Of a stretch of 64,000 bases of DNA, positions 1 through 21,891 are shown one piece after another. Each line of letters starts with the position of its first letter. Within the stretch, counting starts at the first letter, position 1. The position numbers were made by a program, and so were the translations under genes. The DNA is from Phycisphaerae bacterium (GTDB lineage: Bacteria; Planctomycetota; Phycisphaerae; UBA1845; UTPLA1): NCBI GenBank assembly GCA_023150615.1, contig JAKLKO010000013.1:62334-126333 (forward strand). The letters run 5' to 3'. A model generated the notes under the pieces. That model did no database searches. It worked only from the letters and a program-made list of their open reading frames with translations, and was not told the DNA's origin.

Positions 1-536
1 CGCTGGTTGACGAGACGGTCGCGGAGCGATTTCGCGCGATCCTGGCGCGAAAGCTCGACGGGCGAGCCCCACAGGTAGAGTTCGCGCTCGCCGGGCTCGA
101 TGCCGAACCAGCGACGGCTGCGAATGCGGGCGGCCTGGTCGGCGGCCTGGCGCGAGCGGTCGATGAAGAACGGAAGCGGTTCGCCGGTCGAGCCGCCGGT
201 GTTGCAGACGTGCAATCCGCCGAAGACGCGGTCGGCGCAGAGGCGGCGGGGATCGGGACGAATCTCGTCCTTTGTGAGGCACGGAAGTCGTTGCAGGTCG
301 TCAATCGTTGCGCGGCGCGGATCGATGCCCGCCGACGCGATGCGTTCGCGATAGAACGGGATGTGGTCGGCGGCGGACTCAAGGAGCTCGCGCAGCCGGC
401 GGGTTTGAAGTCGTCGCAACTGTCCTGCGCTGCACCACTGCGTCAATTCCAGTTCGGCGGCGCGTGCGAGTGTCCGCCGGCCGAGCAGTCGCTCGTGCAG
501 CGGCAGGATCAGGCGTCGGACCAGTGCGGGATGCAT
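1..536 (-). CDS. CapK/PaaK-like adenylate-forming ligase (partial, N-terminal 178 residues)
   Basis: This is the 5' part of a gene that runs off the left edge of the window. The translation starts MHPALVRRLI and contains the motif CNTGGSTGEP, the nucleotide-binding signature of the phenylacetate-CoA ligase/CapK/F390-synthetase family. CapK-type members near polysaccharide genes are thought to activate an acyl or carboxylate group for transfer to a sugar, but the substrate cannot be read here. The ATG at 536-534 lies inside the 3' end of the AsnB gene (28-base overlap), so the two are probably translationally coupled. It is the last visible gene of the EPS cluster. The family is clear; the exact reaction is inferred. 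Confidence 0.8.
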   Translation of the reverse strand, partial: MHPALVRRLILPLHERLLGRRTLARAAELELTQWCSAGQLRRLQTRRLRELLESAADHIPFYRERIASAGIDPRRATIDDLQRLPCLTKDEIRPDPRRLCADRVFGGLHVCNTGGSTGEPLPFFIDRSRQAADQAARIRSRRWFGIEPGERELYLWGSPVELSRQDRAKSLRDRLVNQ

Positions 537-2455
537 GTGTTTGTCAGGGCAGGGGTCGTGGGCGAGTAGGAGCCGGCGGCCGGACGGTGATCGAACCAGT
601 TCTGGAGCATGACGACCGACCAGATGATTGGACCGTGGTTGCGCGTGGCGGCGACGTGATCCTGCCAGAGTCGATCGAACGCGGCGCGGTCGACGTAGGA
701 CCAGACGTTCGCGCTGGCGTCGTTGCGGAGCGCATCGACGTGCGGGCGAATTTCCATGCGCAAGGCGCGGTCGAGCGCGACATCGAAGCCGCGCTTGGGA
801 CGCGTGCCAACGGACGGTCCGAGTCGGCGCTCGACGAAGCGGCGGAGGAGGTACTTACCCGCGCCGCGTCGCAGTCGCATCGTGGGCGGAATGCGGGAAC
901 AGAATTCGATGAACCGGTAGTCGAGCATCGGCGAGCGGACCTCGAGTCCGCAGGCCATCGAGGCCCGATCGACCTTGGTGAGGATTCCGTCGGGCAGTTC
1001 GAAGCGCAGATCAACGTACTGGCTTTTTGCGAGCGGATCCGGGGCATCGCATCTTTCGTAGAGTTCGCGCGGGCGCTGCCACGGGTCGTAACGAGCGAGC
1101 GAATCGGCAAGGTCGGGCGCAAGCAGGTTGCTCCAGGCGTCCGGCCGCATCCGGGCAATGCTGCGCGCGTGCGCATCGGCAGGGTCGACGGCGAGATTTT
1201 CGAGCGTCGCCGCGCCGCGGAGCCAGCGCGGCAGATCGGGCGAGGTCGGGGTGCGGCGGGCCAGCCTGGGCAGCCAGGTCGCGCGGAACCGATGCGGCAG
1301 GCAGCGGCGGACGCGATTCTCCCACAGGTCGAAGCGGTAGCGGCGGTAGCCGGCGAGGGCCTCGTCACCGCCGTCGCCGCTGAGGGCGACCTTGACGTAC
1401 CGCCGTGCGAAGCGCGCCAGAAAGAGCATGGGGATGGCGGAGGGGTCGGCGAACGGCTCGTCGAACACGTCGCGGAGTTCGTCGAGCAGCGCGGCGGGCT
1501 GCGGTCGGACGATGGCCGAGCGATGCTCGGCGCCGGCGCGCCGCGCGGTTTCAAGCGCGGCCGATCGCTCGTCGAACTCCGCCTCGTCGAAGCCGACGGT
1601 GAACGTCGCGGGGGGCTGGGATCGTTCGTCGGCGGCCGCGGCCAGGACGGCGGCCGAGTCGACGCCGCCGCTGAGCAGGATGCCGAGCGGTACGTCGGAG
1701 ACGAGGCGGTGCCGAGTGGCGTCGCGTAGTTGCGCTTCGAGCTCGGCCGACAAGTCCTGCTCGTCGCCGCGTTGCCAGCCCGCGTGACGCAGCGACCAGT
1801 AGGTCTCGCGCTGCGTGCCGGCGGGGCGGCAAATCCATCGCTGCGCAGGTTCGAGCTTGGCGACGTGTCGAAGGGCCGTGCGTGGCGAGGCGATGAAGCC
1901 GAACGCAAGAAAGTCGGCGATGGCGCACGGGTCGATCTCCCGCGGTGCGCCGGCCGCGACGACCGCGTCGAGTCGTGACGCGAAGACGACTCGATCGCGG
2001 TCTTCGTGGACGTAGAGCGGCTTGACGCCGAGTCGATCGCGTGCGAGCAGCAACAGCCGTCGCGGCGCATCCCAGAGTGCGAAGGCAAACATGCCGCGCA
2101 GGGCCTCGAGCGCATCGGCGCCGCGCTCTTCGTAGAGATGCACGACGACCTCGGCGTCGCCGAGCGTGCGGAATCGATGTCCGCGGGCGACGAGATCGGC
2201 TCGCAGTTCGCGGTAGTTGTATACCTCTCCGTTGAACGTGAGCCAGATAGATTCGTCTTCGTTGCAGAGCGGCTGCCGGCTGCCGTCGGGGTCGATGATC
2301 GCGAGTCGGCGATGGCCGAGCACGGCATGGCGGCCGCGGTGAGTGCCGCCGCCGTCGGGCCCGCGATGCTCGAGAATGCGCAACATTTGCGAGAGCTGCG
2401 CGGCGTCGGCATCGCTCGAACCCTGCCAGCGGACAATCCCGGCGATGCCGCACAT
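509..2455 (-). CDS. asnB: Asparagine synthetase-type amidotransferase of the EPS cluster
   Basis: A 648-residue class II glutamine amidotransferase fused to an ATP-pyrophosphatase synthetase domain, the normal length for AsnB. It starts MCGIAGIV with the catalytic Cys2, followed by HRGPDG and NGEVYNY of the glutaminase domain. SGGVDS of the ATP-binding domain lies near residue 260. The family transfers ammonia from glutamine to a carboxylate through an acyl-adenylate. A subgroup is a standard member of exosortase (XrtA/PEP-CTERM) EPS loci, where it may amidate a sugar acid or a protein rather than make free asparagine. The placement between a methyltransferase and a CapK-like ligase favours this subgroup, but the substrate is inferred. 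Confidence 0.88.
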   Translation of the reverse strand: MCGIAGIVRWQGSSDADAAQLSQMLRILEHRGPDGGGTHRGRHAVLGHRRLAIIDPDGSRQPLCNEDESIWLTFNGEVYNYRELRADLVARGHRFRTLGDAEVVVHLYEERGADALEALRGMFAFALWDAPRRLLLLARDRLGVKPLYVHEDRDRVVFASRLDAVVAAGAPREIDPCAIADFLAFGFIASPRTALRHVAKLEPAQRWICRPAGTQRETYWSLRHAGWQRGDEQDLSAELEAQLRDATRHRLVSDVPLGILLSGGVDSAAVLAAAADERSQPPATFTVGFDEAEFDERSAALETARRAGAEHRSAIVRPQPAALLDELRDVFDEPFADPSAIPMLFLARFARRYVKVALSGDGGDEALAGYRRYRFDLWENRVRRCLPHRFRATWLPRLARRTPTSPDLPRWLRGAATLENLAVDPADAHARSIARMRPDAWSNLLAPDLADSLARYDPWQRPRELYERCDAPDPLAKSQYVDLRFELPDGILTKVDRASMACGLEVRSPMLDYRFIEFCSRIPPTMRLRRGAGKYLLRRFVERRLGPSVGTRPKRGFDVALDRALRMEIRPHVDALRNDASANVWSYVDRAAFDRLWQDHVAATRNHGPIIWSVVMLQNWFDHRPAAGSYSPTTPALTNTCIPHWSDA

Positions 2456-3240: not shown

Positions 3241-4462
3241 GGCTCGGTTCCATTGGCGCCGCGCCGTATGCGCGCACGGTTCGCGTGTTCGGGTTCGGTC
3301 CGGGGGTGCGGGACTCGCGGATCTCGGAGACGACGTAGGGCGGACGGTCGAGGGCGACGGAGTAGAGTCGGCCGACGTACTCGCCCAGCACACCGACGCA
3401 GAGGAGCTGCACCGCGCCGATGGTCGCGACGAGTCCGGCGATCGATGCCCAGCCGGGCACGACGGCACGATTGAACAGCGCGACGATGACGATGTAGGCG
3501 ACATCGAGCAGCGCGAGCGCGGCCAGCGCGAGGCCGAGGATCGTCGCGGCGCGAAGCGGGTAGATCGAGAAACTGAGGCAGCCGTGCGCGGCAAGCCGGA
3601 GCATCGCGCGGAGCGAGAACTTGGATGCGCCGCCGATCCGCGGCCCGGCGTCGTATGTGACGAACTGCGTGGGGAAGCCGAGCCACGGGATCAGTCCGCG
3701 GAGAAACGGCGTGGGTCCGCGGGCGGCGAGGATGGTATCGACGACCGCGCGATCGAGGAGTCGGAAGTCCGCCGTGCCGGGGGCGATCGAGGCTTCGCAG
3801 CAGCGCGAGAACAGACGGTAGAAGCCGCGCGAGGTCCATCGCTTGAGCCGGGGCAGTCGCTCGTCATCGCGTCGGATGGTCTGCACGACCCGCGCGCCCC
3901 TTCGCCAGGCGCGGAGCAGGTCGGGCAGTATTTCGGGCGGGTGCTGGCCGTCGGCGTCCATCGTGATCACCGCGCGGCCGCGGGCGTGCCGCAGTCCGGC
4001 GAGCAGGGCGGCCTGATGGCCGAAGCGCCGGGTCAGTCGCACGACGCGGCCGGTGACCCGGCCGTCGATCAGCGTTCGCTGGGCGGCGGCGGCGGTCTGG
4101 TCGCGACTGCCGTCATCGACGACGACGACCTCGTAGTCGGCGTCGGCGAGGGCGTCGGCGATCCGCGCGAGGACGGTGGGCAGGGCCTGTGCTTCATCGA
4201 GGGCGGGGAGGACGACGCTGATCTCGGGCATCGCGGGCGCTTGCGGCGTCGTTGCGGGCGCGATGTCTCGCGGATCGGGCGCGGCGTCACGGAGGGAATG
4301 GTGGCCGCGCGCGAGTTCGTGAACCTCGGTCGCGAGGGCCCAGCGGGTCCGGCACGACGGGCAGCGCCAGTCGGGCAGTCGTCCCGGCGGCGTTCGGAGC
4401 ACGAGCGCGGTCCGGTCGTTCGGACAGCGGAGTTCGGTCGTCAGGGCGTCGAGCAGGTTCAT
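3230..4462 (-). CDS. GT2 polyprenyl-phosphate glycosyltransferase with N-terminal Trm112-like zinc ribbon
   Basis: A 410-residue protein. Residues about 1-50 carry two CPxC-like pairs (CPNDRTAL and CPSCRTRWAL) resembling a Trm112/small zinc-ribbon fold. Residues about 80-300 form a GT2 domain with VVVDDGSRDQT, TMDADGQHPPE and GGASKFSLRAM, typical of dolichol/undecaprenyl-phosphate sugar transferases such as GtrB/ArnC. Two C-terminal hydrophobic segments fit the usual membrane anchor. The ATG at 4462 overlaps the stop of the upstream ligase gene as ATGA. It probably loads a sugar on a polyprenyl phosphate. The zinc-ribbon fusion is uncommon; see the findings. Confidence 0.85.
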   Translation of the reverse strand: MNLLDALTTELRCPNDRTALVLRTPPGRLPDWRCPSCRTRWALATEVHELARGHHSLRDAAPDPRDIAPATTPQAPAMPEISVVLPALDEAQALPTVLARIADALADADYEVVVVDDGSRDQTAAAAQRTLIDGRVTGRVVRLTRRFGHQAALLAGLRHARGRAVITMDADGQHPPEILPDLLRAWRRGARVVQTIRRDDERLPRLKRWTSRGFYRLFSRCCEASIAPGTADFRLLDRAVVDTILAARGPTPFLRGLIPWLGFPTQFVTYDAGPRIGGASKFSLRAMLRLAAHGCLSFSIYPLRAATILGLALAALALLDVAYIVIVALFNRAVVPGWASIAGLVATIGAVQLLCVGVLGEYVGRLYSVALDRPPYVVSEIRESRTPGPNPNTRTVRAYGAAPMEPSHVG

Positions 4463-5892
4463 CCGCGTGCCCGCAGCGGGCGCGGCACGTCGCCGAGCCG
4501 GCGCAGCAGTCCGATGGGGATCAATTGGCGGCCGCGCGGATCGTCGGCGAGCGGTTGCGCGGCGGCGGAGGCGAACTGCGCCGCGACGGTGGCGGTCAGG
4601 CGCATGTTGCTCAGTTCGCGGCGGAGCGTGGCGCGCAGCGCGACGGCCATGCCGAACATCGCGAACCAGAGATCGAGATAGACCTCGTTGTGGAACAATC
4701 CGTGGATGCAGTAGGCGATCATTCCGAGCAGCAGTCCGCGGGCCCAGTAGTAGCACCAGCGCGTGCGCGGCGGGCCTCGCCGCGCGTAGTGCATGAGCTG
4801 ATACATGCTGGCGATGGCGCCGAGAATCATCGTCAACCAGAGGGCGAAGCCGACGACGCCGAGTTCGACGAGCGACGAGAGCCAGATGTTGTGTGCAGCC
4901 TTGCGGCCGAAGGCGGCGGCGGCGCTGGCGCGTTCGAAGTTGTCGAGTCCGACGCCGATGAGGGGATGCTGCGACAGGAGCAACCACGACGTGCTCCAGA
5001 GCGCGATGCGCGAGCGGGCCGAGTCGTCCTTGCGGTACTGGAGGATGCTGTCGATCCGCGACTGGATCTCATGGCCGGTAGTCATCAGCGCGACGATGCC
5101 GAGCAGGACGACACCGAAGAGGGCCTTGAAACGGTGCTTGCTGGTCCATGCGAAACAGAAGAGCACGGCGGCCAGCGCGACGAAGCCGGCGCGGGAGTTC
5201 GAGCCGATGATCGCCAGGCACATCAGGGCGGCGAAGGTGAGATAGACAAGGCGCCAGCGCGAGTGCGTCACCGAGATGCCGAAATAGAACACCATCGGCA
5301 GGACCATGACGCTCATCAGCGCGAACAGGTTGTTGTCGTAGTTCCGCCCGTAGACCTGGTGCGGGCCGAGCAGCACGACGTTGAGCCCGCCCTTGATTGC
5401 CCAGAACCCGACCGACAGCGCGACCACAACGTAGAGGACGCGGAAGCGCTTGAGATCGGACGCCAGGCCGGTGAGCAGGAACGTGACGAGCGCCATCTTG
5501 AGCAGCCGGCTGTAGGAGGCGGCGGAGTTCTCCGGGCCGAACGGCGCGAGGTAGCGCGTGACGCCGATGTACACGACGAGCGCGGCCATGACGGCCAGCA
5601 GCCAGGACGGCTCGAAGAGCGCGTTTCGCACGAGACGGCGGTCGGCGCCGATGACCACGTTCGTGCCCGGGCGGTAGCGCGGCTCGATGACGAAACGTCG
5701 TACGCCGAGCGCCACCGCGCCGCAGACCATCGGTACGCCGATGATCAACGCATCCTGAAACTCCGGCCGCCAGCAGAGCACCTTCGGCTGCATGAGCGAA
5801 ACGACGTAGTAGACGCAGAGGCCGAAGAACGGTCGGAGGAGGACGATCGGGACGACGGCGAGCAGCAGGCTGACGTAAAGGGCGAAGCGCAT
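4459..5892 (-). CDS. O-antigen ligase/polymerase-like membrane protein (XrtA-type O-glycosylation ligase family)
   Basis: A 477-residue polytopic membrane protein with about ten hydrophobic segments. It begins MRFALYVSLLLAVVPIVLL and continues FFGLCVYYVVSLMQP, like the DUF5935 N-terminus of exosortase-associated O-glycosylation ligases (TIGR03097 as I recall it). SNSRAG and the later periplasmic-loop block HPLIGVGLDNF are typical of Wzy_C/WaaL ligases. Such proteins polymerise or transfer undecaprenyl-linked glycans on the outer face of the inner membrane. A 172-base gap precedes it and the downstream GT2 overlaps it by ATGA, so this gene may begin a sub-operon. Polymerase versus ligase activity is not decidable by sequence. 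Confidence 0.82.
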   Translation of the reverse strand: MRFALYVSLLLAVVPIVLLRPFFGLCVYYVVSLMQPKVLCWRPEFQDALIIGVPMVCGAVALGVRRFVIEPRYRPGTNVVIGADRRLVRNALFEPSWLLAVMAALVVYIGVTRYLAPFGPENSAASYSRLLKMALVTFLLTGLASDLKRFRVLYVVVALSVGFWAIKGGLNVVLLGPHQVYGRNYDNNLFALMSVMVLPMVFYFGISVTHSRWRLVYLTFAALMCLAIIGSNSRAGFVALAAVLFCFAWTSKHRFKALFGVVLLGIVALMTTGHEIQSRIDSILQYRKDDSARSRIALWSTSWLLLSQHPLIGVGLDNFERASAAAAFGRKAAHNIWLSSLVELGVVGFALWLTMILGAIASMYQLMHYARRGPPRTRWCYYWARGLLLGMIAYCIHGLFHNEVYLDLWFAMFGMAVALRATLRRELSNMRLTATVAAQFASAAAQPLADDPRGRQLIPIGLLRRLGDVPRPLRARG

Positions 5893-11179: not shown

Positions 11180-12457
11180 TCAGGCCGCCGCGAACGCGGT
11201 GCGCTGCGGCGCGGGCGTGCCCAGGACAGCCCGCTCGAACTCGACCAGCAGCGGCTCCCACGAATAGCGCGCCAGGACGCAGCGGTGTCCGGCGCGGGCA
11301 TACGCGTCGCAGAGGACGTCGTCGATGAGCAGCTCGACGACCCGCGCGGCGAAGTCGGTGGGGCGGTCGGCGACGAGGAGGTCCCGGCCGGGGGCAGCGA
11401 GCAGTCCGCCGGCCGCGGCGGGCGTGGCGACCACCGGACGCCGGTGGGCGAGGAAATCGAGCACCTTGTTCGGCACGCCGCGCGAGATTCGCAGGGGCGC
11501 GACGCCGACGCGGATCGGCGCGAGCGCGGCGCCGAGGTCTTCGACGCGTCCGGTCACGAGGATTCCGTCCCGGCCGTCCCAGCGTCCGAGGTCGCGCGGC
11601 GGCTGGGGGCCGATGATTCGAAACGTGGCGTTGGGGACGCGGCGGCGGACGATGGGCCAGACGCAGCGCAGAAACCAGCGGACGGCATCGGCGTTGGGCC
11701 GGTAGTGCAGCGCGCCGAGGAATCCGACGACGCGGTCGGCGTCAGAGGCATCGGGCGGCGGATCGAGCGGTACGCGTACCCCGTTGCCGATGACGGTCGT
11801 CGGGCCCGGGGTGCCGTGGGCTGTGAGCAATCGTCGTTCGCGCTCGTGGACGAAGACCGTCAGGTCGGCGCGACGGCTCCAGTCGAACTCGTCGCGGCGC
11901 AGTCGCCGCGCTTCGCATCGCAGAAACCAGGCGCGAGGACCGCGCATCGCGCTGGCGAGGTCGCTCCATTTCTCGCTGTCAGCATCGCAGAAATCGAGAA
12001 TGCGTCGCCGCGCGGGAACCGCGAGCGCGTACGGCGTCATGCTGGAGGAGAACGCGACGGCGGCATCGTACGGGCGATGGGCGGTGAACTGACGAACGGC
12101 GCGGTGCACTGCGGTGAAATCGTACGCGGCGCGCGTCAGGCTGCGGCCGAGCAGGAATCCGACGCCGGCACGGGCCGCCGCCGCGAACCGCGTCCACGGG
12201 ACCGTCGTGACCGAACGGCAGAGGCGTCGCAGCGTTTCGATGTGGCCCGGAGTCGCGGCGGGCTCGATGAACGCGACGAGGTCCACGTCGTGGCGCTCCG
12301 CGAGATGTCGGAGGATTTGGTACGAGCGGATACGATCGCCTTTGTCGGGCGGGTATGGCAGCCGGTGCGCGAGGTAGAGGATGCGGGCGCGCCTCGGCGA
12401 TTCCGACCGCGGCGCGGCGACTGCGATGCGATCTGTCGGCGTGAGAGTGCGCGACAT
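11180..12457 (-). CDS. TIGR03087-like glycosyltransferase of PEP-CTERM/XrtA systems
   Basis: A 425-residue GT4-like protein. The N-terminus ILYLAHRLPYPPDKGDRIRS is the hallmark of the sugar transferase family found with EpsH/exosortase loci (TIGR03087). Later motifs include VIGNGV, VGFLGALHYRPNADAVRWF and the sugar-nucleotide region VPNKVLDFLAHRRPVVATP. The family is strongly tied to exosortase-type EPS gene clusters, so this gene is one of the best single clues to the type of locus. It starts three bases after the FemAB-like gene ends, consistent with one transcript. The sugar transferred is unknown. Confidence 0.88.
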   Translation of the reverse strand: MSRTLTPTDRIAVAAPRSESPRRARILYLAHRLPYPPDKGDRIRSYQILRHLAERHDVDLVAFIEPAATPGHIETLRRLCRSVTTVPWTRFAAAARAGVGFLLGRSLTRAAYDFTAVHRAVRQFTAHRPYDAAVAFSSSMTPYALAVPARRRILDFCDADSEKWSDLASAMRGPRAWFLRCEARRLRRDEFDWSRRADLTVFVHERERRLLTAHGTPGPTTVIGNGVRVPLDPPPDASDADRVVGFLGALHYRPNADAVRWFLRCVWPIVRRRVPNATFRIIGPQPPRDLGRWDGRDGILVTGRVEDLGAALAPIRVGVAPLRISRGVPNKVLDFLAHRRPVVATPAAAGGLLAAPGRDLLVADRPTDFAARVVELLIDDVLCDAYARAGHRCVLARYSWEPLLVEFERAVLGTPAPQRTAFAAA

Positions 12458-12460
12458 CGA

Positions 12461-13585
12461 TCAGCCCGGTATCCAACGTGCGACGCGGCCGCCGAGGGGT
12501 CGCGTGAGCATCAGCGGCATTCGACGCCAGACGCGCCGCGCAATCGCCCAACGCGGACTTGTGGGCGTCAGCTCCGGCGGTGCACGGCCGGGTGCGAGGA
12601 TGTGTTGATATTGCAGCGGTTGCGGTTCGAAGCCGTGGAAGCGCTTGAAGTCCGACGCGCCGGGGTTGTCGCGGCGTGAACGGCCGAAGTCATAGACGCT
12701 CGCACCGCAGCGGACCGCGTCTTCCATCGATGCGCGGTACAGAAAGTTGTTCAGCCCGTATGCGTCGAGCCGCTCATCGGTCCCGACGAAGTAGGGCATG
12801 GCCGTGCCGGCATGCAGGAAGGTGACGAGTCCGGCGGCGGGTCGGCCGTCGAGTCGAACGAGCTGGACGCGGACTGCGGTTCCCAGTTCGTTGACGAGCG
12901 CCTCGAAGAACTGGAGCGGATAGTTGGGCGATGCCAGGCGACGCATCGAACGGCCGTAGAGCTTCCAGACCGTCGCGATGTGCGCCGCGTCGAATTCAAC
13001 GTCAAGCGGGTATTTCGCCGCGGCGCGGCGCGCCGCAGCGCGGGCCTTTCGAGGCAGCCAGTCCGCGACATCGTCGACCCGGTCCGGGAGCGGCCGACGG
13101 TAGGTCGCGTAGCGATCGACGATCGGCCGATCCGGATCGGCGGCGTGACGGGAACGCAGGTCGATGAGTCGTGCGTCCACTTCGGTCATGAGGGCCGCGG
13201 CGCGATCGAGCAGGGCGCGCGCCGTTGCCGCGTCATCGGCGAGGACGCCGCCGTACGTCGCGTAGGGGACGCTGACGAGCATCCGGCCGGCCAGCGGACT
13301 TCGGACAAGCATGAGCGGCAGCACACCGCAGATTCCGCCGCCGCGCAGTGCGACGAGCGAGTGATCGGCGTGTCCGAACACGCGCACGACGGCGCGACGC
13401 CAGCCGTGCGCGTGGCAGATCGTTCCATCGTCGTGTTGCGCGACGTAGGCATCCCAATCGGCGGCGCGATCGCGCGAATGGGCTTCGATGCGGATCGGAT
13501 CAGCGTGAACTGGGGGCGCGGCAGGCCGTGCGGGCGAAGGATCAACCCGCGTCGATTTCGTTGAGCAGGCCAGCGGAACCGGCAT
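12461..13585 (-). CDS. FemAB-like N-acyltransferase, PEP-CTERM/XrtA-associated type
   Basis: A 374-residue protein of the GNAT/FemAB superfamily. Typical blocks are WDAYVAQHDDGTICHAHGW near the N-terminus, LPLMLVRSPLAGRMLVSVPY, and the C-terminal YDFGRSRRDNPGASDFKRF. FemAB-related proteins are constant members of exosortase EPS loci and may attach an aminoacyl or acyl group to a glycan or lipid carrier; no substrate is established here. The ATG at 13585 gives a 44-base overlap with the kinase gene, unusually long, but no better start with a complete N-terminal domain is visible. Confidence 0.83.
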   Translation of the reverse strand: MPVPLACSTKSTRVDPSPARPAAPPVHADPIRIEAHSRDRAADWDAYVAQHDDGTICHAHGWRRAVVRVFGHADHSLVALRGGGICGVLPLMLVRSPLAGRMLVSVPYATYGGVLADDAATARALLDRAAALMTEVDARLIDLRSRHAADPDRPIVDRYATYRRPLPDRVDDVADWLPRKARAAARRAAAKYPLDVEFDAAHIATVWKLYGRSMRRLASPNYPLQFFEALVNELGTAVRVQLVRLDGRPAAGLVTFLHAGTAMPYFVGTDERLDAYGLNNFLYRASMEDAVRCGASVYDFGRSRRDNPGASDFKRFHGFEPQPLQYQHILAPGRAPPELTPTSPRWAIARRVWRRMPLMLTRPLGGRVARWIPG

Positions 13586-14453
13586 TGGCAGCCACCGCGA
13601 TGCAACCCATCACGTGCAGGTTGTTGGATTGGAGCCAGCGAACCGATTGCTTGACAGTCTCCAGACGCGTGCGGTGCATCCGAACGACCATCAGCACGCC
13701 GGTGCAGAGCGATCCGACGACGCCGGCGTCCGACGCCGCCTGCACCGCTGTTGTATCGGCCAGGACGTAGTGATATCTCTCGCGCAGCTCGTCCATGAGC
13801 CGGCCCGCCGTGCGGCTGCTCAGCGCCGCCGTCGGCACTTCATCGCGAACCGATCCGGCCGGCAGGATCCAGAGATTCTCGATCGGCGTGGCGTGCACGG
13901 CCTCGGGAAGCGTCGCACGCCCGGCAAGCACGTCGGCCAGGCCCGTCGCGTGCTCAAGTCCGAACAACCGGCTGAGGCCGGCGGTGCGCAGGTCGGTGTC
14001 GAGCATGAGCACGGCGAGATGGCGGACCTCGGCGAGGGCGATGGCAAGATTGGCGGTCGTGACGGACTTGCCCTCACCGCGGTCGCTGCTCGTGACGGCC
14101 AGGATGCGATGCTCGCCGGTGCTGTTGTGCGACAAGATCCAGGTCCGCAGCGCGCGGTACTGTTCGGCGACGGCGCTGGAGCGGCCGTGGTGGGCGACGA
14201 GCTGCGGGCTATCCAAGCTCGCCCGCGACTTTTTGTCGGCGGGGACGGCCGGTCCGCTGCGCGAATGGCGCGTCGGCGCCTCCGCGCGGTCGAGGGCATC
14301 GGCGATCGGCGTGCGGGTCTTCCGGGCGGGGGTCGATGCGGTGTCGGTGTCGCGCAGCGTGGTCTGAGGCGCGTCGACGATCGGCGCGTGCAGTTGCCGC
14401 GTTTCCCGTCGATGCGTCTCGGCGCGTCTCAGTGCTTCCGCGATGCGACCCAT
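13542..14453 (-). CDS. CpsD/CapB-like tyrosine-kinase (BY-kinase) ATPase lacking a Tyr-rich tail
   Basis: A 303-residue cytoplasmic P-loop protein. Walker A is SSDRGEGKSVTTANLA, Walker A' is VLMLDTDLR and the Walker B-like segment is YHYVLADTT. These match exopolysaccharide/PEP-CTERM-locus tyrosine autokinases. The first 100 residues are a low-complexity extension with MGRIAEALRRAE, a form common in this subgroup. The usual C-terminal cluster of tyrosines is absent; the protein ends AGLLNEIDAG. It follows the Wzz-like gene by 15 bases, so the two likely form the membrane-adaptor/kinase pair controlling chain length and export. Confidence 0.86.
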   Translation of the reverse strand: MGRIAEALRRAETHRRETRQLHAPIVDAPQTTLRDTDTASTPARKTRTPIADALDRAEAPTRHSRSGPAVPADKKSRASLDSPQLVAHHGRSSAVAEQYRALRTWILSHNSTGEHRILAVTSSDRGEGKSVTTANLAIALAEVRHLAVLMLDTDLRTAGLSRLFGLEHATGLADVLAGRATLPEAVHATPIENLWILPAGSVRDEVPTAALSSRTAGRLMDELRERYHYVLADTTAVQAASDAGVVGSLCTGVLMVVRMHRTRLETVKQSVRWLQSNNLHVMGCIAVAANAGSAGLLNEIDAG

Positions 14454-14468
14454 GATTCGTGGCTCCCG

Positions 14469-16220
14469 TCAGTCGTGCCCCGGCGTCACCGCGTCGCCGA
14501 CCGGTTCGGCGAATGTCAGTTGACCTGCGATGATCGGCGCGGCCGCGATCGCCGGCCGCAGTTGCGCCGGACGCGTGAGCGTTCGATAGGCCAGCGCGCC
14601 GGAGCCGACCAGCGTCAACACCAGCACGGCGTACATCGCCGGCAACACGACGACGCGTTGCAGCAGCTTCCGGCGGCGGTCCGCCTGCGTCACGATCTCG
14701 TCGATCGCCTCGAGGACCGGAACGCCGATCGCCTTGCCGATCTGGCCGACGCTGCGGAAGGAGCGGTCCGCCACCTCCGACAGCAGCATGGAGGCGAGCC
14801 CGACCACGACGCCGACGACCAGACAAAACGTCAGCGCCGTCTTCGCCGCGGGCGAGGTCGGCGTGACCACGGTCGCCGGGTTCTTCGCGATGGAAAAGAG
14901 CACGCCGCGGTTGCCGTGCTGCACGGTCAGTACGCGATTGATCGGCTCGATGTTCTGCTTCCACACGGCCACCTCGCCGCGGGCGGCGGCCAGTTGCGAC
15001 TCGAGTGATGCGAACGTCGGCTTCTGCGCCGCGGCTTCGACCTGTTCGGCGTGCAGAGCGTCGATCCGCCCGAGCACGTCTGCCCGACGCTGTTCGAGCG
15101 CCGCGCGGCGGCGCGTCAGCCCGGCGAGCGTCCGTTGCAGGCGCAGCGGTTCGTCGTCGCCGGCGTCGACCTGCACGGTCGGAGGCGCGCTCGCCACGGG
15201 CACGGCGATCGTCGCAGGCGTCTTTGAGAGAGCGATCTGAATCGCGTCGATTTTTTCGCGAAGCGCGATGACGGTCGGGTGCTCCTCGGTCATGCGCCGG
15301 ACCTGCCGCGCCTCCGACAGGTCGCGCTGCACAGTGTCGAGATCGGCCACGAGCCGCGCGACGTGCGGATTCGGCACCACCGTCTGCGATGCGGCCGGGC
15401 GGACGGCGCGCATCGTCGGATTGGCCTTCGCGGCCGTCGCCTCGTCGTAGGCCGTGCGGGCCTCGGCGATCTTCCCCTCGACGCCGTTGATTTCGTTGCG
15501 CAGCGACGCGTCCTCGTCGTGCAGCTTCTGCAATTCGCGCTGGATCGTCTCGGCCGACGCATCATCGACGCCGGGATAGTCGCAGATCATCTGCGCGACC
15601 TGCTGCTCGATCGCGTCGCACTTGCGCTGTGCCTCGGCGGCCTGCTTCTCGAAGAAGTCGCGGACTTCGACGAGTACGCCGTTCATGCGCTGCTGCGCCT
15701 CGCGGATGTACGCGTCGCGCACGCGCGTCAGAACGGCGGGGTAGTCGGTCGCGTCGCGGCCGGAAAGGCTGAGCGTCACGCGCTCGGCGTCGGTGCCAAG
15801 TTCGTCGATGGCGACGTTGAATTCCGACAGCAGGCGAGCGGCGTACGCCGAGCGCCGCGCGGCGATCGGCGTCGCCGGTACGTCGCGGCCCGCGTTGCGC
15901 AGCGGCAGATCCAGCGCCGCAAGCGCGCTGATCCACAGTGCCGGTCGGCGCAGATCGCTCGCCATCGTGGCACGGACCGATTCGACAGCGTCCGTCCAGC
16001 CCTTGCCCATGTTGGCCAGCACGAGGTCGCGGCGGCGGTCGAAGCTCGTCGAGACGCTGTAGGACCGCGGCCAAAGCATCGACAGGCCGAATGCGCCGGA
16101 CGTCACCAGAAGGAAGGGAACGATGAGCCAGCGGCGGCGGTTGCGGACGATGCGCCAGGCCTCGCCCAGCGTGTGGCGAAGGTCGGTGACGGTGAATTCA
16201 TCAGCGTGATGTTCGAACAT
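14469..16220 (-). CDS. Wzz-like polysaccharide chain-length determinant
   Basis: A 583-residue inner-membrane protein. A first membrane span lies near residues 33-53 (LIVPFLLVTSGAFGLSMLW). A long periplasmic part with coiled-coil-forming heptads covers about residues 180-430. Two further hydrophobic segments near the C-terminus are TFCLVVGVVVGLASMLL and VVVLPAMYAVLVLTLVGS. This plan fits the XrtA-system chain-length family (TIGR03007 type), longer than enterobacterial Wzz. It should work with the CpsD-like kinase next to it and the Wza-like lipoprotein, 12 bases from its start, to set polymer length and couple polymerisation to export. Confidence 0.86.
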   Translation of the reverse strand: MFEHHADEFTVTDLRHTLGEAWRIVRNRRRWLIVPFLLVTSGAFGLSMLWPRSYSVSTSFDRRRDLVLANMGKGWTDAVESVRATMASDLRRPALWISALAALDLPLRNAGRDVPATPIAARRSAYAARLLSEFNVAIDELGTDAERVTLSLSGRDATDYPAVLTRVRDAYIREAQQRMNGVLVEVRDFFEKQAAEAQRKCDAIEQQVAQMICDYPGVDDASAETIQRELQKLHDEDASLRNEINGVEGKIAEARTAYDEATAAKANPTMRAVRPAASQTVVPNPHVARLVADLDTVQRDLSEARQVRRMTEEHPTVIALREKIDAIQIALSKTPATIAVPVASAPPTVQVDAGDDEPLRLQRTLAGLTRRRAALEQRRADVLGRIDALHAEQVEAAAQKPTFASLESQLAAARGEVAVWKQNIEPINRVLTVQHGNRGVLFSIAKNPATVVTPTSPAAKTALTFCLVVGVVVGLASMLLSEVADRSFRSVGQIGKAIGVPVLEAIDEIVTQADRRRKLLQRVVVLPAMYAVLVLTLVGSGALAYRTLTRPAQLRPAIAAAPIIAGQLTFAEPVGDAVTPGHD

Positions 16221-17015: not shown

Positions 17016-17332
17016 GGCGTACCGTCCGTGTGGTGCCCAGGTCGCGCCGGGTGCTCTCGGACCCGGCGGCGAACATCTGCCTGATCGACCGCGCGGCCGG
17101 GTCGGTGAACTTACAAGCGTCGTTTTTTGCGCCGGGGCGGCGGAATCGGCCGTTGGGGCGGGCGCGCGCTCCAATGCGCCGGGTCCACGCGCGCCGCGCA
17201 CGTCCGAAAACCCATGCGTTGGCGTCGCGCGACCGGCACTTTTCGCTCGTTCGAGATGGCCTTCGCATCCAGCGTTCGCGAAGCCGACTCCGATAACTGA
17301 CCAGAGCGCGCGCTCGTGCGGAGACCCCCGCC
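17016..17332. other. Divergent intergenic region between EPS operon and ATPase gene
   Basis: These 317 bases separate two divergently transcribed genes and must hold the promoters of both the EPS operon and the ATPase/coiled-coil gene, or at least one shared control region. I could not find a convincing -35/-10 pair in either direction. A short T-run (six T at about 17125-17130) and a short GC-rich inverted repeat around 17270 are the only visible features. Confidence 0.5.
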
Positions 17333-20300
17333 ATGTACTGCGACCATTTCGATCTGGCGCTGCTGCCGTTCAACAACACGCCCGATCCGCGGTTTTTCTA
17401 CAACACGCCGGACCACGAGGAGGCCCTCGCCTCACTGCTCTACGCCGCGACCGAGCGCAAGGGCTACGCGCTCGTCACCGGCGAGGTCGGATCGGGCAAG
17501 ACCCTGCTCAGCCGACTGCTGCTCTCGCGCCTGCCGGCCGGGACGCAGACGGCGGTCATCACGAACTCGCGCCTGAGCGGTGCGGAATTGTTGACGGCCA
17601 TCTGCCGCGAGTACCAACTGCCGCTCGAGCCCGGCGCGACGGTCGCCGAGGCGTCGCACCTGCTGGAGCAGTTCCTGCTTGAGCAATACGCGCGCGATCG
17701 GCTTGTCATCGTCGTGCTCGATGAAGCCCAGAATCTCCCGCCCGACGCGTTCGAAGAGCTCCGCCTGCTCGGAAACCTCGAGGCCGAGGACGCCAAGCTG
17801 CTGCAGGTACTCGTCCTTGGACAACCCGAGCTTCAGGCGACGATTCGCCGGCCGGAGCTGCGCCAACTCCGCCAGCGCCTGTTTCGCACGTTCCACCTTC
17901 GCGCGCTGACGCGCGAGCAGACGGGCGGGTACATCGGGCATCGGCTGGAAGTCGCGGGGGCGACGCGCGAGCTGTTCACGCCCGACGCGATCGACGCGAT
18001 CTACCGCGCCTCGCAGGGCGTGCCGCGCCTGATCAATCAGACGTGCGACAACGCGCTGCTGGCGGCTTTCGGCGCGGGACGCGACCAGGTGACGCACGAC
18101 ATCGTCCGCGAGTGCATCGAAGCGGACGAAGCGCCGGCCATCGCGCCGCGGCTGGCGGCACGGGTTCCGGATGCCGCGCCGACCGAGACCGCCCCGAGTA
18201 ACCCGCCGGCAACGCGTGCGACCGCAATCGGCGACGTGGCGGCCGAGAAGCTGCTGCGGCGCTTGACCGAGATCGAATCGCGGATCGAGAGCCTGACGGA
18301 TCGCGTGCGTTCGCCGCGCGAGAATGAGCAGGTGGCGCACCGCGATCTCCAGAAGATCCGCGCGATCCGCGCGGACGCCGAGGCGATGCTGGCCGAGGCG
18401 GCGTCAGCGGTCGAGTCCATCCGCACGGGTTCGGTGGATGCGCTTCGCGACGGCGCTGCACGGCTGGGTGTGTCGGGCGAGCAGGCGCAGGCCGTTCAGT
18501 CGGCGACGAGCAGCCTCCGCGCGGAGCTGGAAGCAGAGGCGTCGCGGCTGGTGGACGAAATCCGGATGCACGCCGACGCCGAGCGGCGTCGCACGTCCGA
18601 GTTCGTGCGGGCCGAGCAGGAACGCTTGGAACCGCTTCGCAAGGACCTGGACGCACTCGTCAAGAGCGTCCTCGAAGAGGCTCGGACCGCGGACCAGCGC
18701 GCGGTCGAGGCGGCCCGGCACGCCCGTGACAGCGTGGGCGCGTCGGAGTCGGGCGTTGCGGCCCTTTCCGAAGCAGCGCGCCGACGGAGCGAGGCGGCGC
18801 TGACGGGCCTGGCGAACTTCGTGCTCGCGGCGCGGACGCGCTGCGAGTCGGCCTCGGCGCAGGTCTCGCAGTCGTTCGTGGAGGCGAAAGTCGAGATCGA
18901 CGCGGCGCGGGCGCAGCTGGAGAAGGCGCGCCGCGCCGTCGAGAGCGACGCTGAGTCGACGCGCGGCAAACTGCTCGCGCTGGTCGACGAGGCCCGGCGG
19001 GTCTTCGGTACGACGCGCGGACAGCTCGAGGCGTCGATCCGCCAGTTGCAGCAGCGCATCGACGAGCAGAATCGGCGAATCGAGGAATTGCATTGCCAGG
19101 CGGCGGTGACGTCCGGGCGGAGCATCAGCGAGGTGCAGGCGTCGATCGCCGCGGCGGCCGCCGAGGCGCAGCGCGTCCGCTCCGAACTGGAGTCGGCCGC
19201 GGCACTGGCTGTGTCGCGCGTGCAGGAATCGACGCAGCAGATGTCGGCCGCGACGGCTGCGTGCGAGGCCGACGTGGCGGCAATGCGCCGCCAGGCGGCG
19301 TCGGTGCGGGACGAGATCGCGCGTCAACTGGCCGAGGCGCGAACGCAGAGTGAATCGCTCCTGGCCGAGCAGGCGCAGCAGATCGAGACGATTCGTCGCC
19401 GGTCGGCGCAGGCGACCGCCGGCGTGCGCGACGAGGCGGCGTCGATCCGCGAGGCGTTCGCAACGGAACTGGCCGCGATCCGCACGCGGGCGGAGCAGGA
19501 GGCGGAGCAGGCGCTCGCTTCGATCGACCAGCGGCTTGGCGCGCGGAAGTCGCAGGCGACGGAGATTCACGAGCGAATGGAGCAAACGGTGCGGACGATG
19601 CAGGCCCGCGCCCGCGAGCTTCAGGAGCAACTGGAGAAGGACATCGCCCGCATTTCCGGTCCGCTGGAATTCGCGCGGGAAATGAAGGACGGTGTCGGCC
19701 GGCTGACCTCGGCGCGCGACGCGCTGCGGCGCGAGATTACCGAGGATGAGACGCGCGTTGCGACGCTTGTGGAACTGACGCGCAACGAAGTGGAGCGACT
19801 GACCGGCGCGCTCGGGACGCTCCAGTCCGAGCTGCGCAGCGAACTGGCAACGGCGCGCGAGCAGACCGAGTCCGACCGGCGCACGGCCCGCGCCGCGGCA
19901 TCGCGCATGGTCGCCGGGCTGAATTCGCTGCTCGGCCGCGCGACGCGGCGCGTGGAGCAGATCGAGGGCCGCCTGTCGGGCCTCCTGCAGCGCGCCGATG
20001 CGCGGACGGCCGAGTTCTCGCAATTGGCGGAAGACATCTGCCGGCGACTCGACTCGACCATGACGACGCTGCGCGATACGGCGGCGCTCCTGCAGACTCA
20101 GCACGAGGAGCAGGCGTCCCGGTTCCGCACGGAGTTGACGGACGCCGTCGCAAAGGCGCAGGAGGAAGTCGGACTGGTCGAACGCCGCATCGAGACGATG
20201 CTGGTCCAGGTTCGCGCCGCCAGCGCCGAATTTGAATCGCGCGTCACCACGTTGCGAGACTCGGCCGTCGGCGATCTGGACGCGGTCCGCGGCGAGCTGT

Positions 20301-21712
20301 CGCGGACCGTGGCGACTGCCGAGTCGACAGCGGAACTGCTCCGCCAGGAGACGGCGGGCATGCGCGAGGAACTGGCCGGTTCCACGGCGCGGGCGCGACA
20401 GTCGCTGCACGAGGCGATCGAGCGGACGCAGGTCGCCGGCGAGCGGTTGCAGCGCCAGGGCGGCGAAGTCGTCGAGACCGTCCGCGCCGAGCTGGAACGG
20501 TTGGCCGGCGAGTCCGAGACGCTGCGGCTCGAGATCGGCTCAGCTCACGACGAGATCGTGCGCGCCACCGAGGCGGCCGAGTCGCGTTTGCGTCAGACGG
20601 CGGCGGGGATTACTTCGCAGATCGAGTCGCTGCGCGACGCGACGAATCGCGACGCGGAGGGCAACGTGCGGCGGCTGGCGGGGCTGCGCGAGCAGATCGA
20701 AGGCGGGGCGGACCGCGTTCGCACGAGCGCCGCGGCGCTGCTGCAGCAGGTGCAGAGCGGCTCGGACGCGCTGCGGCAGCGCGCCGATGAACTGCTGGCC
20801 GGTGCACAATCCGGCGCTGCGCGAATCTCGGAGGAGGCCGCGGCGCTGCTTTCGGGCGCGCGGACCACGGCCGAGCGCTTCGAGCAGCAGGCCGCCGCTC
20901 TGTTGCAGCGTGCCGAGCAGGCGACCGAGGCGATCCGCGCCGAGGCCGGCGCGATCCGCCAGCGCCTTGACGAGGACAGGGAGCGCTTCTGCGAGACGAC
21001 CGGGGTGCTCGCCGAGAAGGCCGATCGCGCGAACGAGAAGTCCGAGGAGCTGCTGCGCCGAGCCGCGCAGACCGAATCGCAGGCCCGCGAGTTGCTGTCG
21101 ATGCCCACGCGGATCATCGCCGAGGCCGAGCAGCGCTCCGGCGAGTTGCGGAAAATGGCCGACGCCGTCTCGGAGATCATCGAGCGCCTCCGCAACGCCG
21201 GCACGTCGGCGCGGCAGCAGACCGAGCAGGTCCGTCATGCGACGGCCGTCGCGGACGAGCGCATGGCGCAGTTGGCGCAGCACTCGGCGCGCCTCGGCCA
21301 GCTCGTCGGCATCATCCGACAGTTGTACGGCGCGATGGATGCGCGGATCGACCACCTGCGCGAACGACTGGATCGCGCGGACGATCTGTGCCGCTCGATC
21401 CCCCACGAGATCAACTCGCTGCGCGATGCGCTGGGGACCGAGCGGCGGACCGCGCCACACACAGAGTTGCGGGGAGCTCGCGACGGCCAACCGGGCGACG
21501 GTGCGGACGCGAATGATTCGTCCGTCGCCGTGGCCGCAGCGCCGTCGACGTCCAAAGTCCGCACTCGCGCCGCCGCTCCGAAGACCGCGCGGCTGAAGCC
21601 CCCGAACCTCAGCGAACTGGTTCGCAAGAACCAGAAGCTCAACGAGTGGCTCCGCGAGGCCATCGCGGAATCGAAGCAATCCGACGCGCCGTCCGCGAAG
21701 GACGGGATCTGA
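17333..21712 (+). CDS. ExeA-like secretion ATPase (PEP-CTERM locus type) fused to a very long coiled coil
   Basis: A 1459-residue protein in one unbroken frame. Residues 1 to about 270 are an AAA+ ATPase of the ExeA/GspA type, close to the PEP-CTERM-locus secretion ATPase family: start MYCDHFDLALLPFNNTPDP, Walker A GEVGSGKT at 50-57, Walker B LVIVVLDEAQ at 124-133, then QGVPRLINQTCDNALL. Normal family members end here. From about residue 300 to 1370 the sequence is almost wholly Ala/Glu/Arg/Gln-rich with heptad-like spacing, few prolines and no clear membrane span, so an extended coiled coil is expected. The tail is basic and ends in a short segment around LSELVRKNQKLNEWLREAI. It is divergent from the EPS operon and probably works with it. 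The role of the coil is unknown. Confidence 0.85.
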   Translation: MYCDHFDLALLPFNNTPDPRFFYNTPDHEEALASLLYAATERKGYALVTGEVGSGKTLLSRLLLSRLPAGTQTAVITNSRLSGAELLTAICREYQLPLEPGATVAEASHLLEQFLLEQYARDRLVIVVLDEAQNLPPDAFEELRLLGNLEAEDAKLLQVLVLGQPELQATIRRPELRQLRQRLFRTFHLRALTREQTGGYIGHRLEVAGATRELFTPDAIDAIYRASQGVPRLINQTCDNALLAAFGAGRDQVTHDIVRECIEADEAPAIAPRLAARVPDAAPTETAPSNPPATRATAIGDVAAEKLLRRLTEIESRIESLTDRVRSPRENEQVAHRDLQKIRAIRADAEAMLAEAASAVESIRTGSVDALRDGAARLGVSGEQAQAVQSATSSLRAELEAEASRLVDEIRMHADAERRRTSEFVRAEQERLEPLRKDLDALVKSVLEEARTADQRAVEAARHARDSVGASESGVAALSEAARRRSEAALTGLANFVLAARTRCESASAQVSQSFVEAKVEIDAARAQLEKARRAVESDAESTRGKLLALVDEARRVFGTTRGQLEASIRQLQQRIDEQNRRIEELHCQAAVTSGRSISEVQASIAAAAAEAQRVRSELESAAALAVSRVQESTQQMSAATAACEADVAAMRRQAASVRDEIARQLAEARTQSESLLAEQAQQIETIRRRSAQATAGVRDEAASIREAFATELAAIRTRAEQEAEQALASIDQRLGARKSQATEIHERMEQTVRTMQARARELQEQLEKDIARISGPLEFAREMKDGVGRLTSARDALRREITEDETRVATLVELTRNEVERLTGALGTLQSELRSELATAREQTESDRRTARAAASRMVAGLNSLLGRATRRVEQIEGRLSGLLQRADARTAEFSQLAEDICRRLDSTMTTLRDTAALLQTQHEEQASRFRTELTDAVAKAQEEVGLVERRIETMLVQVRAASAEFESRVTTLRDSAVGDLDAVRGELSRTVATAESTAELLRQETAGMREELAGSTARARQSLHEAIERTQVAGERLQRQGGEVVETVRAELERLAGESETLRLEIGSAHDEIVRATEAAESRLRQTAAGITSQIESLRDATNRDAEGNVRRLAGLREQIEGGADRVRTSAAALLQQVQSGSDALRQRADELLAGAQSGAARISEEAAALLSGARTTAERFEQQAAALLQRAEQATEAIRAEAGAIRQRLDEDRERFCETTGVLAEKADRANEKSEELLRRAAQTESQARELLSMPTRIIAEAEQRSGELRKMADAVSEIIERLRNAGTSARQQTEQVRHATAVADERMAQLAQHSARLGQLVGIIRQLYGAMDARIDHLRERLDRADDLCRSIPHEINSLRDALGTERRTAPHTELRGARDGQPGDGADANDSSVAVAAAPSTSKVRTRAAAPKTARLKPPNLSELVRKNQKLNEWLREAIAESKQSDAPSAKDGI

Positions 21713-21826: not shown

Positions 21827-21891
21827 GAGGCCGCGTGGGATGGCGGACGATTTCCGGCCGGACAGCGCCGGTGCGGGTTGGAGGACGAACC

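What the first reader, a model, noticed from the sequence alone, without database searches (positions are those of the whole stretch)
17333..21712. ExeA-like secretion ATPase fused to a coiled coil of over 1000 residues
Seen: an ATPase with intact Walker A (residues 50-57) and Walker B (124-133) continues without stop into about 1070 residues of heptad-like, Ala/Glu/Arg-rich sequence. Known: PEP-CTERM-locus ATPases of this type are about 270-300 residues long. Inference: the coil could be a long scaffold, a spacer or a filament that couples the ATPase to the EPS export machinery encoded divergently next to it.
Basis: partly seen in the sequence, partly recalled or inferred. Interest (0 to 1): 0.85.

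Follow-up and report, generated by a model that had tools for sequence, protein, structure and literature searches.

The report
ATPase with an adjustable, very long rod
In a group of uncultured planctomycetes, the ATPase made next to the exopolysaccharide-export genes carries a rod of 450 to about 1290 residues with a conserved tip; the fusion is real and conserved, its 18-residue repeat is unusual, and what the rod does is not yet known.

Summary
One uninterrupted 1459-residue frame (17333-21712, +) joins an AAA+ ATPase (residues 1-265, Walker A 50-57, Walker B ending in D130-E131) to about 1,100 residues of predicted helix. It is not an assembly join: all 15 other same-family genomes with an ATPase-domain hit have it, always divergent from wza-wzz-kinase-femAB-stp1. 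Related families of the same unnamed Phycisphaerae order have it too, with shorter or longer rods. The coil is under purifying selection (dN/dS 0.03-0.05).

Anatomy: ATPase, flexible linker, rod of very variable length, conserved coil end (CE1), disordered linker, conserved terminal helix (CE2). In this family the rod is not a heptad coil: its hydrophobic period is 3.60 (18-residue repeat), whereas related families mostly show 3.5.

ExeA's membrane segment and peptidoglycan-binding domain were not found. The head is a below-cutoff relative of the XrtA/PEP-CTERM ATPase, with the AAA+ fold of MuB and TnsC. Best explanation: a cytoplasmic, ATP-controlled oligomer whose rod is a length-tolerant tether between head and a tail-bound partner. 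Obligate coupling to EPS export is not shown: family f4 has the locus without the rod, f2 the rod without the locus. New variant of a known kind.

The parts
17333..18127 (+). AAA+ ATPase head, residues 1-265
   Evidence: AAA_22 E 4.4e-23; TIGR03015 240 bits, below its 324.5 cut-off; G50, G53, G55, K56, T57, D130, E131, R182 and R232 invariant in 15 f1 proteins; fold of the f1 homologue L038 matches MuB/TnsC/ORC
17480..17503 (+). Walker A, GEVGSGKT, residues 50-57
   Evidence: sequence; conserved
17702..17725 (+). Walker B, LVIVVLDE, residues 124-131
   Evidence: sequence; D130 and E131 invariant
18128..18337 (+). Flexible Pro/Ala-rich linker, residues 266-335
   Evidence: 11% Pro in residues 271-335; the matching stretch of the L038 model is disordered, 291-325
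18338..20947 (+). Rod, residues 336-1205: 18-residue (3.60) repeat in two phase-constant stretches, about 345-765 and 795-1200, with a phase step near P777
   Evidence: periodicity and phase; autocorrelation at lags 18/36/54; per-position profile 4-4-3-4-3; helical in the L038 model
21104..21106 (+). Nearly invariant Pro1258 in the transition from 18-residue to heptad periodicity
   Evidence: at least 90% conserved in 15 f1 proteins; change of period towards CE1 in the pooled 16 f1 proteins
21080..21448 (+). Heptad coil segment, residues 1250-1372, ending in conserved element CE1
   Evidence: period 3.51 in CE1-anchored windows, n = 16 pooled
21284..21448 (+). CE1, residues 1318-1372
   Evidence: 71% column identity in 1321-1350, 36% in 1351-1380; f1 profile finds C-ends in f7, f2 and f8 at 14-27 bits, best shuffle 3.6
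21449..21592 (+). Linker, residues 1373-1420, predicted disordered
   Evidence: low conservation; low pLDDT in the matching stretch of L038, 926-972
21593..21670 (+). CE2, C-terminal helix, residues 1421-1446 (LSELVRKNQKLNEWLREAI)
   Evidence: L1426, W1439, L1440 invariant and N1433, K1435, L1436 nearly so; helix 973-990 in L038
16233..17201 (-). Wza-type polysaccharide export protein, divergent neighbour
   Evidence: Poly_export E 1.4e-17; adjacent and divergent in every f1 locus with the ATPase
14469..16220 (-). Wzz/XrtA-type chain-length determinant
   Evidence: TIGR03007 E 1.5e-17, below cut-off
13542..14453 (-). Tyrosine autokinase
   Evidence: TIGR01007 123 bits, over its 108 cut-off; TIGR03018 below cut-off
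12461..13585 (-). FemAB-type XrtA-system protein
   Evidence: TIGR03019 284 bits, over cut-off
11180..12457 (-). Glycosyltransferase Stp1 of XrtA systems
   Evidence: TIGR03087 331 bits, over cut-off
4459..5892 (-). Putative O-glycosylation ligase of exosortase A systems
   Evidence: TIGR03097 176 bits, cut-off 188
509..2455 (-). XrtA/PEP-CTERM-type amidotransferase
   Evidence: TIGR03108 615 bits, cut-off 817

Best explanation
A cytoplasmic AAA+ ATPase of the XrtA/PEP-CTERM-locus type that, in one order of Phycisphaerae, has gained a long helical rod ending in a conserved coil end (CE1) and a flexibly attached terminal helix (CE2). Proposed working: the head assembles into an ATP-dependent oligomer, as MuB and TnsC do; the rods associate as straight, 18-residue-repeat coiled coils; CE1 closes the bundle; CE2 captures a partner up to about 150 nm away if the rod is fully extended. 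The rod is a length-tolerant tether, not a precise ruler, and in most members it serves the adjacent EPS-export and PEP-CTERM locus. Shown by computation: fusion, conservation, purifying selection, periodicity, conserved tail, gene neighbourhood, AAA+ fold (of a homologue). Inferred: oligomerisation, rod pairing, partner binding, role in EPS export.
For: Fusion divergent from wza in every f1 genome with an ATPase hit. Middle of the rod 13-25% identical and variable in length (453-1288 residues between linker and CE1), while the head (55-83% over residues 1-240) and CE1 (71% at 1321-1350) are conserved; this pattern is expected of a spacer between two functional ends. CE1 recognisable in f7, f2 and f8 C-ends, including 511-514 aa forms whose model has a single 84-residue helix. 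Core spacing 4-4-3-4-3 and lag-18 autocorrelation (Z 10.5 in the window protein, 30.9 pooled over f1) indicate a coil. No membrane segment seen. Head fold nearest MuB, TnsC and ORC/Cdc6. Exosortase and PEP-CTERM proteins in 38 of 41 genomes searched, own genome included.
Against: f4 keeps the locus with a rodless 384-393 aa ATPase; f2 and several homologues have the rod without adjacent wza, so EPS is not the only context. AlphaFold models the rod of L038 with low confidence (pLDDT 44-73) as three helices of 174-201 residues. That could mean a compact folded bundle, or the known AlphaFold artefact with long and non-canonical coils (PMC11676326). No partner for CE2 was identified and no oligomer was modelled. 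The CE2 profile finds nothing outside f1 clearly above chance.
Confidence: 0.5

Rival explanations
1. Molecular ruler: rod length sets polysaccharide chain length, as the coiled coil of WbdD does for E. coli O9a O-antigen.
For: The gene lies beside a chain-length determinant and kinase, and rod length differs strongly between genera, as serotype-like polymer lengths would. WbdD precedent: PMC5082667.
Against: WbdD carries the chain-terminating activities and is membrane-anchored at about 20 nm; here no such domain or anchor was found, the rod could reach 67-191 nm, and rod length varies 2.8-fold within one family. A separate Wzz-type protein is present beside it.
Confidence: 0.08
2. Filament: head-to-tail or side-by-side assembly into a cytoplasmic fibre that places export sites or shapes the cell.
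For: Straight-coil repeat of near-constant phase over about 400-residue stretches, conserved coil end, and a head fold related to filament-forming MuB and TnsC.
Against: Several MuB and TnsC filament structures in the hits are assembled on DNA; no filament was modelled; variable length within one family fits a tether as well.
Confidence: 0.15
3. The helix lies on a membrane or polymer surface as an extended amphipathic helix, like apolipoproteins or perilipins, and does not pair.
For: Period 3.60 equals the free alpha-helix; basic residues flank the hydrophobic face and acidic ones lie opposite; weak Apolipoprotein match, 19 bits, E 0.0012, far below its cut-off of 90.
Against: The hydrophobic face is narrow and shows the 4-4-3-4-3 core spacing of coiled coils; most sister-family rods at the same place have ordinary 3.5 heptad periodicity; the segment next to CE1 is heptad.
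Confidence: 0.12
4. The rod folds back into a compact antiparallel three-helix bundle of about 25-30 nm.
For: AlphaFold2 of L038 gives three consecutive helices of 201, 175 and 174 residues with short turns.
Against: pLDDT is lowest near the turns (44-47); AlphaFold is known to bend long coils spuriously (PMC11676326); in the window protein the phase is near-constant over stretches of about 400 residues, with one clear step.
Confidence: 0.15

Closest known systems
XrtA/PEP-CTERM system-associated ATPase (TIGR03015)
   Same: Same head over its whole length (profile 1-264 of 269); locus with XrtA-type wza, wzz, kinase, FemAB, Stp1
   Different: Below the family's cut-off (240 against 324.5 bits); adds about 1,190 residues; listed Planctomycetota matches mostly lie in open frames of 270-350 aa
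ExeA/GspA of type II secretion
   Same: Cytoplasmic AAA-type ATPase domain linked to envelope secretion (PMC4098917)
   Different: No membrane segment and no peptidoglycan-binding domain found
MuB / TnsC AAA+ ATPases
   Same: Closest bacterial fold matches of the modelled homologues; ATP-dependent oligomers
   Different: About 14-22% identity; no transposase seen next to it; DNA binding not tested
WbdD coiled-coil ruler
   Same: Enzyme head plus coil in a polysaccharide pathway (PMC5082667)
   Different: Different enzyme; [quoted passage not shown]
Non-heptad coiled coils, including hendecad families
   Same: Stutter-bearing, near-straight geometry; 18 = 14 + 4 (PMC9369452)
   Different: Here an 18-residue repeat runs for about 870 residues in one family whose relatives mostly use heptads

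Membership tests
TIGR03015 XrtA/PEP-CTERM ATPase | Score over the curated cut-off | tested here: not met
   240.3 bits against 324.5; only 3 of 294 phylum genomes have a match that passes
TIGR03015 XrtA/PEP-CTERM ATPase | Full-length alignment with Walker A and B | tested here: met
   residues 1-263 to profile 1-264; motifs
TIGR03015 XrtA/PEP-CTERM ATPase | XrtA-type EPS locus, exosortase and PEP-CTERM proteins in the genome | tested here: met
   one exosortase match, 21 PEP-CTERM matches
ExeA/GspA | Single transmembrane segment | tested here: not met
   no hydrophobic segment of TM strength by Kyte-Doolittle, maximum 19-residue mean 0.93
ExeA/GspA | Periplasmic peptidoglycan-binding domain | tested here: not met
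   only AAA_22 found in Pfam; rod matches weak and unrelated
Coiled coil | Periodic hydrophobic core beyond chance | tested here: met
Coiled coil | Knobs-into-holes packing, oligomer | not testable with these tools
   only monomers can be modelled here
MuB/TnsC-type AAA+ | AAA+ initiator-type fold | tested here: met
   Foldseek E 2.4e-9 to 8xvb, TM-score by target 0.64, for homologue L038, not for the window protein itself
MuB/TnsC-type AAA+ | ATP-dependent filament or ring | not testable with these tools
   needs purified protein
WbdD-type ruler | Chain-terminating enzyme and membrane anchor | tested here: not met
   head is AAA+; no TM found

The most novel reading that the evidence does not exclude
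An AAA+-headed cytoplasmic rod system, found so far only in one order of Phycisphaerae, in which ATP state controls bundles of straight 18-residue-repeat coils that tether or space export sites over 70-190 nm: a new kind of bacterial scaffold whose reach evolves by lengthening or shortening the rod.
Probability: 0.15. Interest if true: 0.85.

Novelty: new variant of a known kind. Interest (0 to 1): 0.55.

Why it matters
It is a conserved natural series of the same ATPase with no rod, a short rod and rods of very different lengths, including a switch of coil repeat between 7 and 18 residues. That makes it testable what a long rod adds to an ATPase of the PEP-CTERM/EPS systems, for whose role I found no experimental description, and supplies a long natural example of an 18-residue coiled-coil repeat.

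Tried and rejected
Assembly join or frameshift artefact: rejected. Chance open frame at high GC: rejected by protein-level conservation and dN/dS. Membership in SMC: the 40.8-bit SMC match lies in the coil, far below its 567 cut-off, and the head is a complete AAA+ domain. Recent tandem duplication as source of the repeat: TRF finds only two tiny arrays. Indels in multiples of the repeat: pairwise indels were inspected, but the alignment itself favours phase-preserving gaps, so no claim is made. Sigma-54 promoter in the intergenic gap: matches in the window do not exceed chance, 18 against 16.5 expected, and none lies in the gap 17202-17332. Same fusion elsewhere in the phylum: 11 loci were inspected, chosen by me from the longer open frames and from short controls, so this is not a census. 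The longer frames showed no coil-like periodicity: disordered-looking tails, or frames where the ATPase match and the extra length look like overlapping non-coding frame; one 485-aa protein has a TM and a repeat at its end that I read by eye as SPOR-like. Solved structures: no sequence match to head or rod. Literature: no paper found holding PEP-CTERM, ATPase, coiled-coil and Planctomycetes together; open-access library only, so this is weak evidence of novelty.
Full report
Observation. The frame 17333-21712 (+) encodes 1459 residues without a stop. Residues 1-265 are an AAA+ ATPase with intact Walker motifs. Residues 336-1360 are rich in Ala, Arg and Glu and nearly free of proline. The own genome has a single copy.

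Conservation. A search of 40 relatives and a neighbourhood analysis show the same fusion in the 15 other family members with an ATPase-domain hit, 1021-1821 aa as called from the first start codon. G002, G013 and G014 carry it on contigs of 3.9-5.5 Mb, so it is not an assembly join. In every one the gene is divergent from wza, with wzz, tyrosine kinase, femAB and stp1 behind it. Families f5 and f7 show the same arrangement with long rods, and f6 with an 823-aa protein; L050, L055 and L065 (f8) have 467-586 aa versions next to wza. The genome-contig scan gave 62 loci. The record titles are mostly uncultured Planctomycetota, many of them Phycisphaerae; exceptions are two Deltaproteobacteria and one Desulfobacteraceae record with ATPases of 264-279 aa and no rod, one record titled Alphaproteobacteria whose protein matches the f8 type, and one titled only 'bacterium'. 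In most loci with readable context wza is divergent. The scan used only two peptide patterns, so more distant members may be missed. The identity of the order is inferred from these titles, one of them UBA1845; the genome search gives no names.

Exceptions that matter. f4 has the EPS locus with ATPases of 384-393 aa. f2 has 791-1473 aa rod proteins not beside wza (L054, L056, L057), in genomes with no detected exosortase or PEP-CTERM match. L058-L060, L062 and L068 are further long-coil homologues away from wza; the neighbours examined show no common theme. In other parts of the phylum, 11 loci picked by frame length or as short controls contained no long coil; this was a hand-picked sample.

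Anatomy. In the f1 alignment the head is 55-83% identical over residues 1-240, the middle of the rod 13-25%, CE1 71% at 1321-1350. CE2 is a short helix near the C-terminus with W1439 and L1440 invariant. A CE1 profile built from f1 finds C-ends in f7 (27 bits), f2 (24 and 16 bits) and f8 (14-21 bits); the best of the shuffled controls scores 3.6. Shuffling removes coil periodicity, so part of this margin may reflect coil character, though no f5 rod appears among the listed matches. CE2 is not detectable outside f1 by profile; f5 and f8 tails contain helices that look similar by eye only.

Periodicity. Sliding Fourier analysis puts the hydrophobic period of the f1 rods at 3.57-3.605, against 3.505-3.52 in f5 and f7. 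Exceptions outside f1 exist: L051 3.63, L057 3.62, L065 3.58, L058 3.55, L108 3.69. Autocorrelation peaks at lag 18 in f1 and at lag 14 in the pooled others. In the window protein the phase is steady at 3.60 from about 345 to 765, steps near P777, and is steady again to about 1200; near CE1 the period becomes 3.51 in the 16 f1 proteins pooled. The per-position profile of 795-1205 has core positions spaced 4-4-3-4-3, an explicit example being AAALLQQVQSGSDALRQR / ADELLAGAQSGAARISEE / AAALLSGARTTAERFEQQ / AAALLQRAEQATEAIRAE (1133-1204). Straightness of such a coil follows from general coiled-coil theory (my knowledge; 18 = 14 + 4 in PMC9369452).

Selection and tree. In two close pairs the rod evolves under strong constraint (dN/dS 0.027 and 0.051). 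An ATPase tree places the f1 rows together, but with weak deep support, long branches and one f2 row drawn among them; I draw no conclusion from it on the order of rod gain or on the direction of the change between 7- and 18-residue repeats.

Structure. AlphaFold2 was run on two homologues, not on the window protein. L091 (514 aa): AAA domain, disordered linker, helix 348-431, two short terminal helices; mean pLDDT 66. L038 (1023 aa): AAA domain at about 75-93, disorder, helices 326-526, 533-707, 714-887, short helices, disorder, CE2 helix 973-990. The rod is low confidence, and AlphaFold is known to bend long coils and to do badly on non-canonical ones (PMC11676326). Foldseek against the PDB gives ORC/Cdc6, MuB and TnsC as nearest folds.

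Interpretation. A conserved head, a conserved tip and a rod that keeps its periodicity but not its sequence or length suggest a tether. Known spacers usually conserve length (PMC5082667), so a precise ruler is unlikely. The neighbourhood points to EPS and PEP-CTERM export, but f2 and f4 show that neither strictly requires the other. Oligomer, partner and cellular role are inference.

Noticed in passing
window 32395-33726 (+): Predicted protein of 443 aa combining tetratricopeptide repeats with two RNA polymerase alpha C-terminal-domain matches; an unusual combination.
   Followed up: no
G128 contig C1: Eight matches to TIGR03015 with the same score and frame length (276 aa) in one genome, which looks like copies in a mobile element.
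   Followed up: no
L058:11823-18626: 2267-residue ATPase-plus-coil homologue in an f5 genome that also has the wza-linked copy; the next gene starts on its stop codon (also in L059), hinting at a coupled partner, which has no Pfam match.
   Followed up: partly
L139:6948-8405: A 485-aa TIGR03015 relative in another planctomycete carrying a TM segment and, by eye, a SPOR-like end: the C-terminus of this ATPase family seems to be extended differently in different lineages.
   Followed up: partly
G017, G024, G028 (family f2): No exosortase and no PEP-CTERM match in three genomes that still carry rod ATPases.
   Followed up: partly
window 21835-23154 (+): Endonuclease/exonuclease/phosphatase-type gene downstream of the fusion; not found by BLAST in the relatives' loci examined.
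   Followed up: partly
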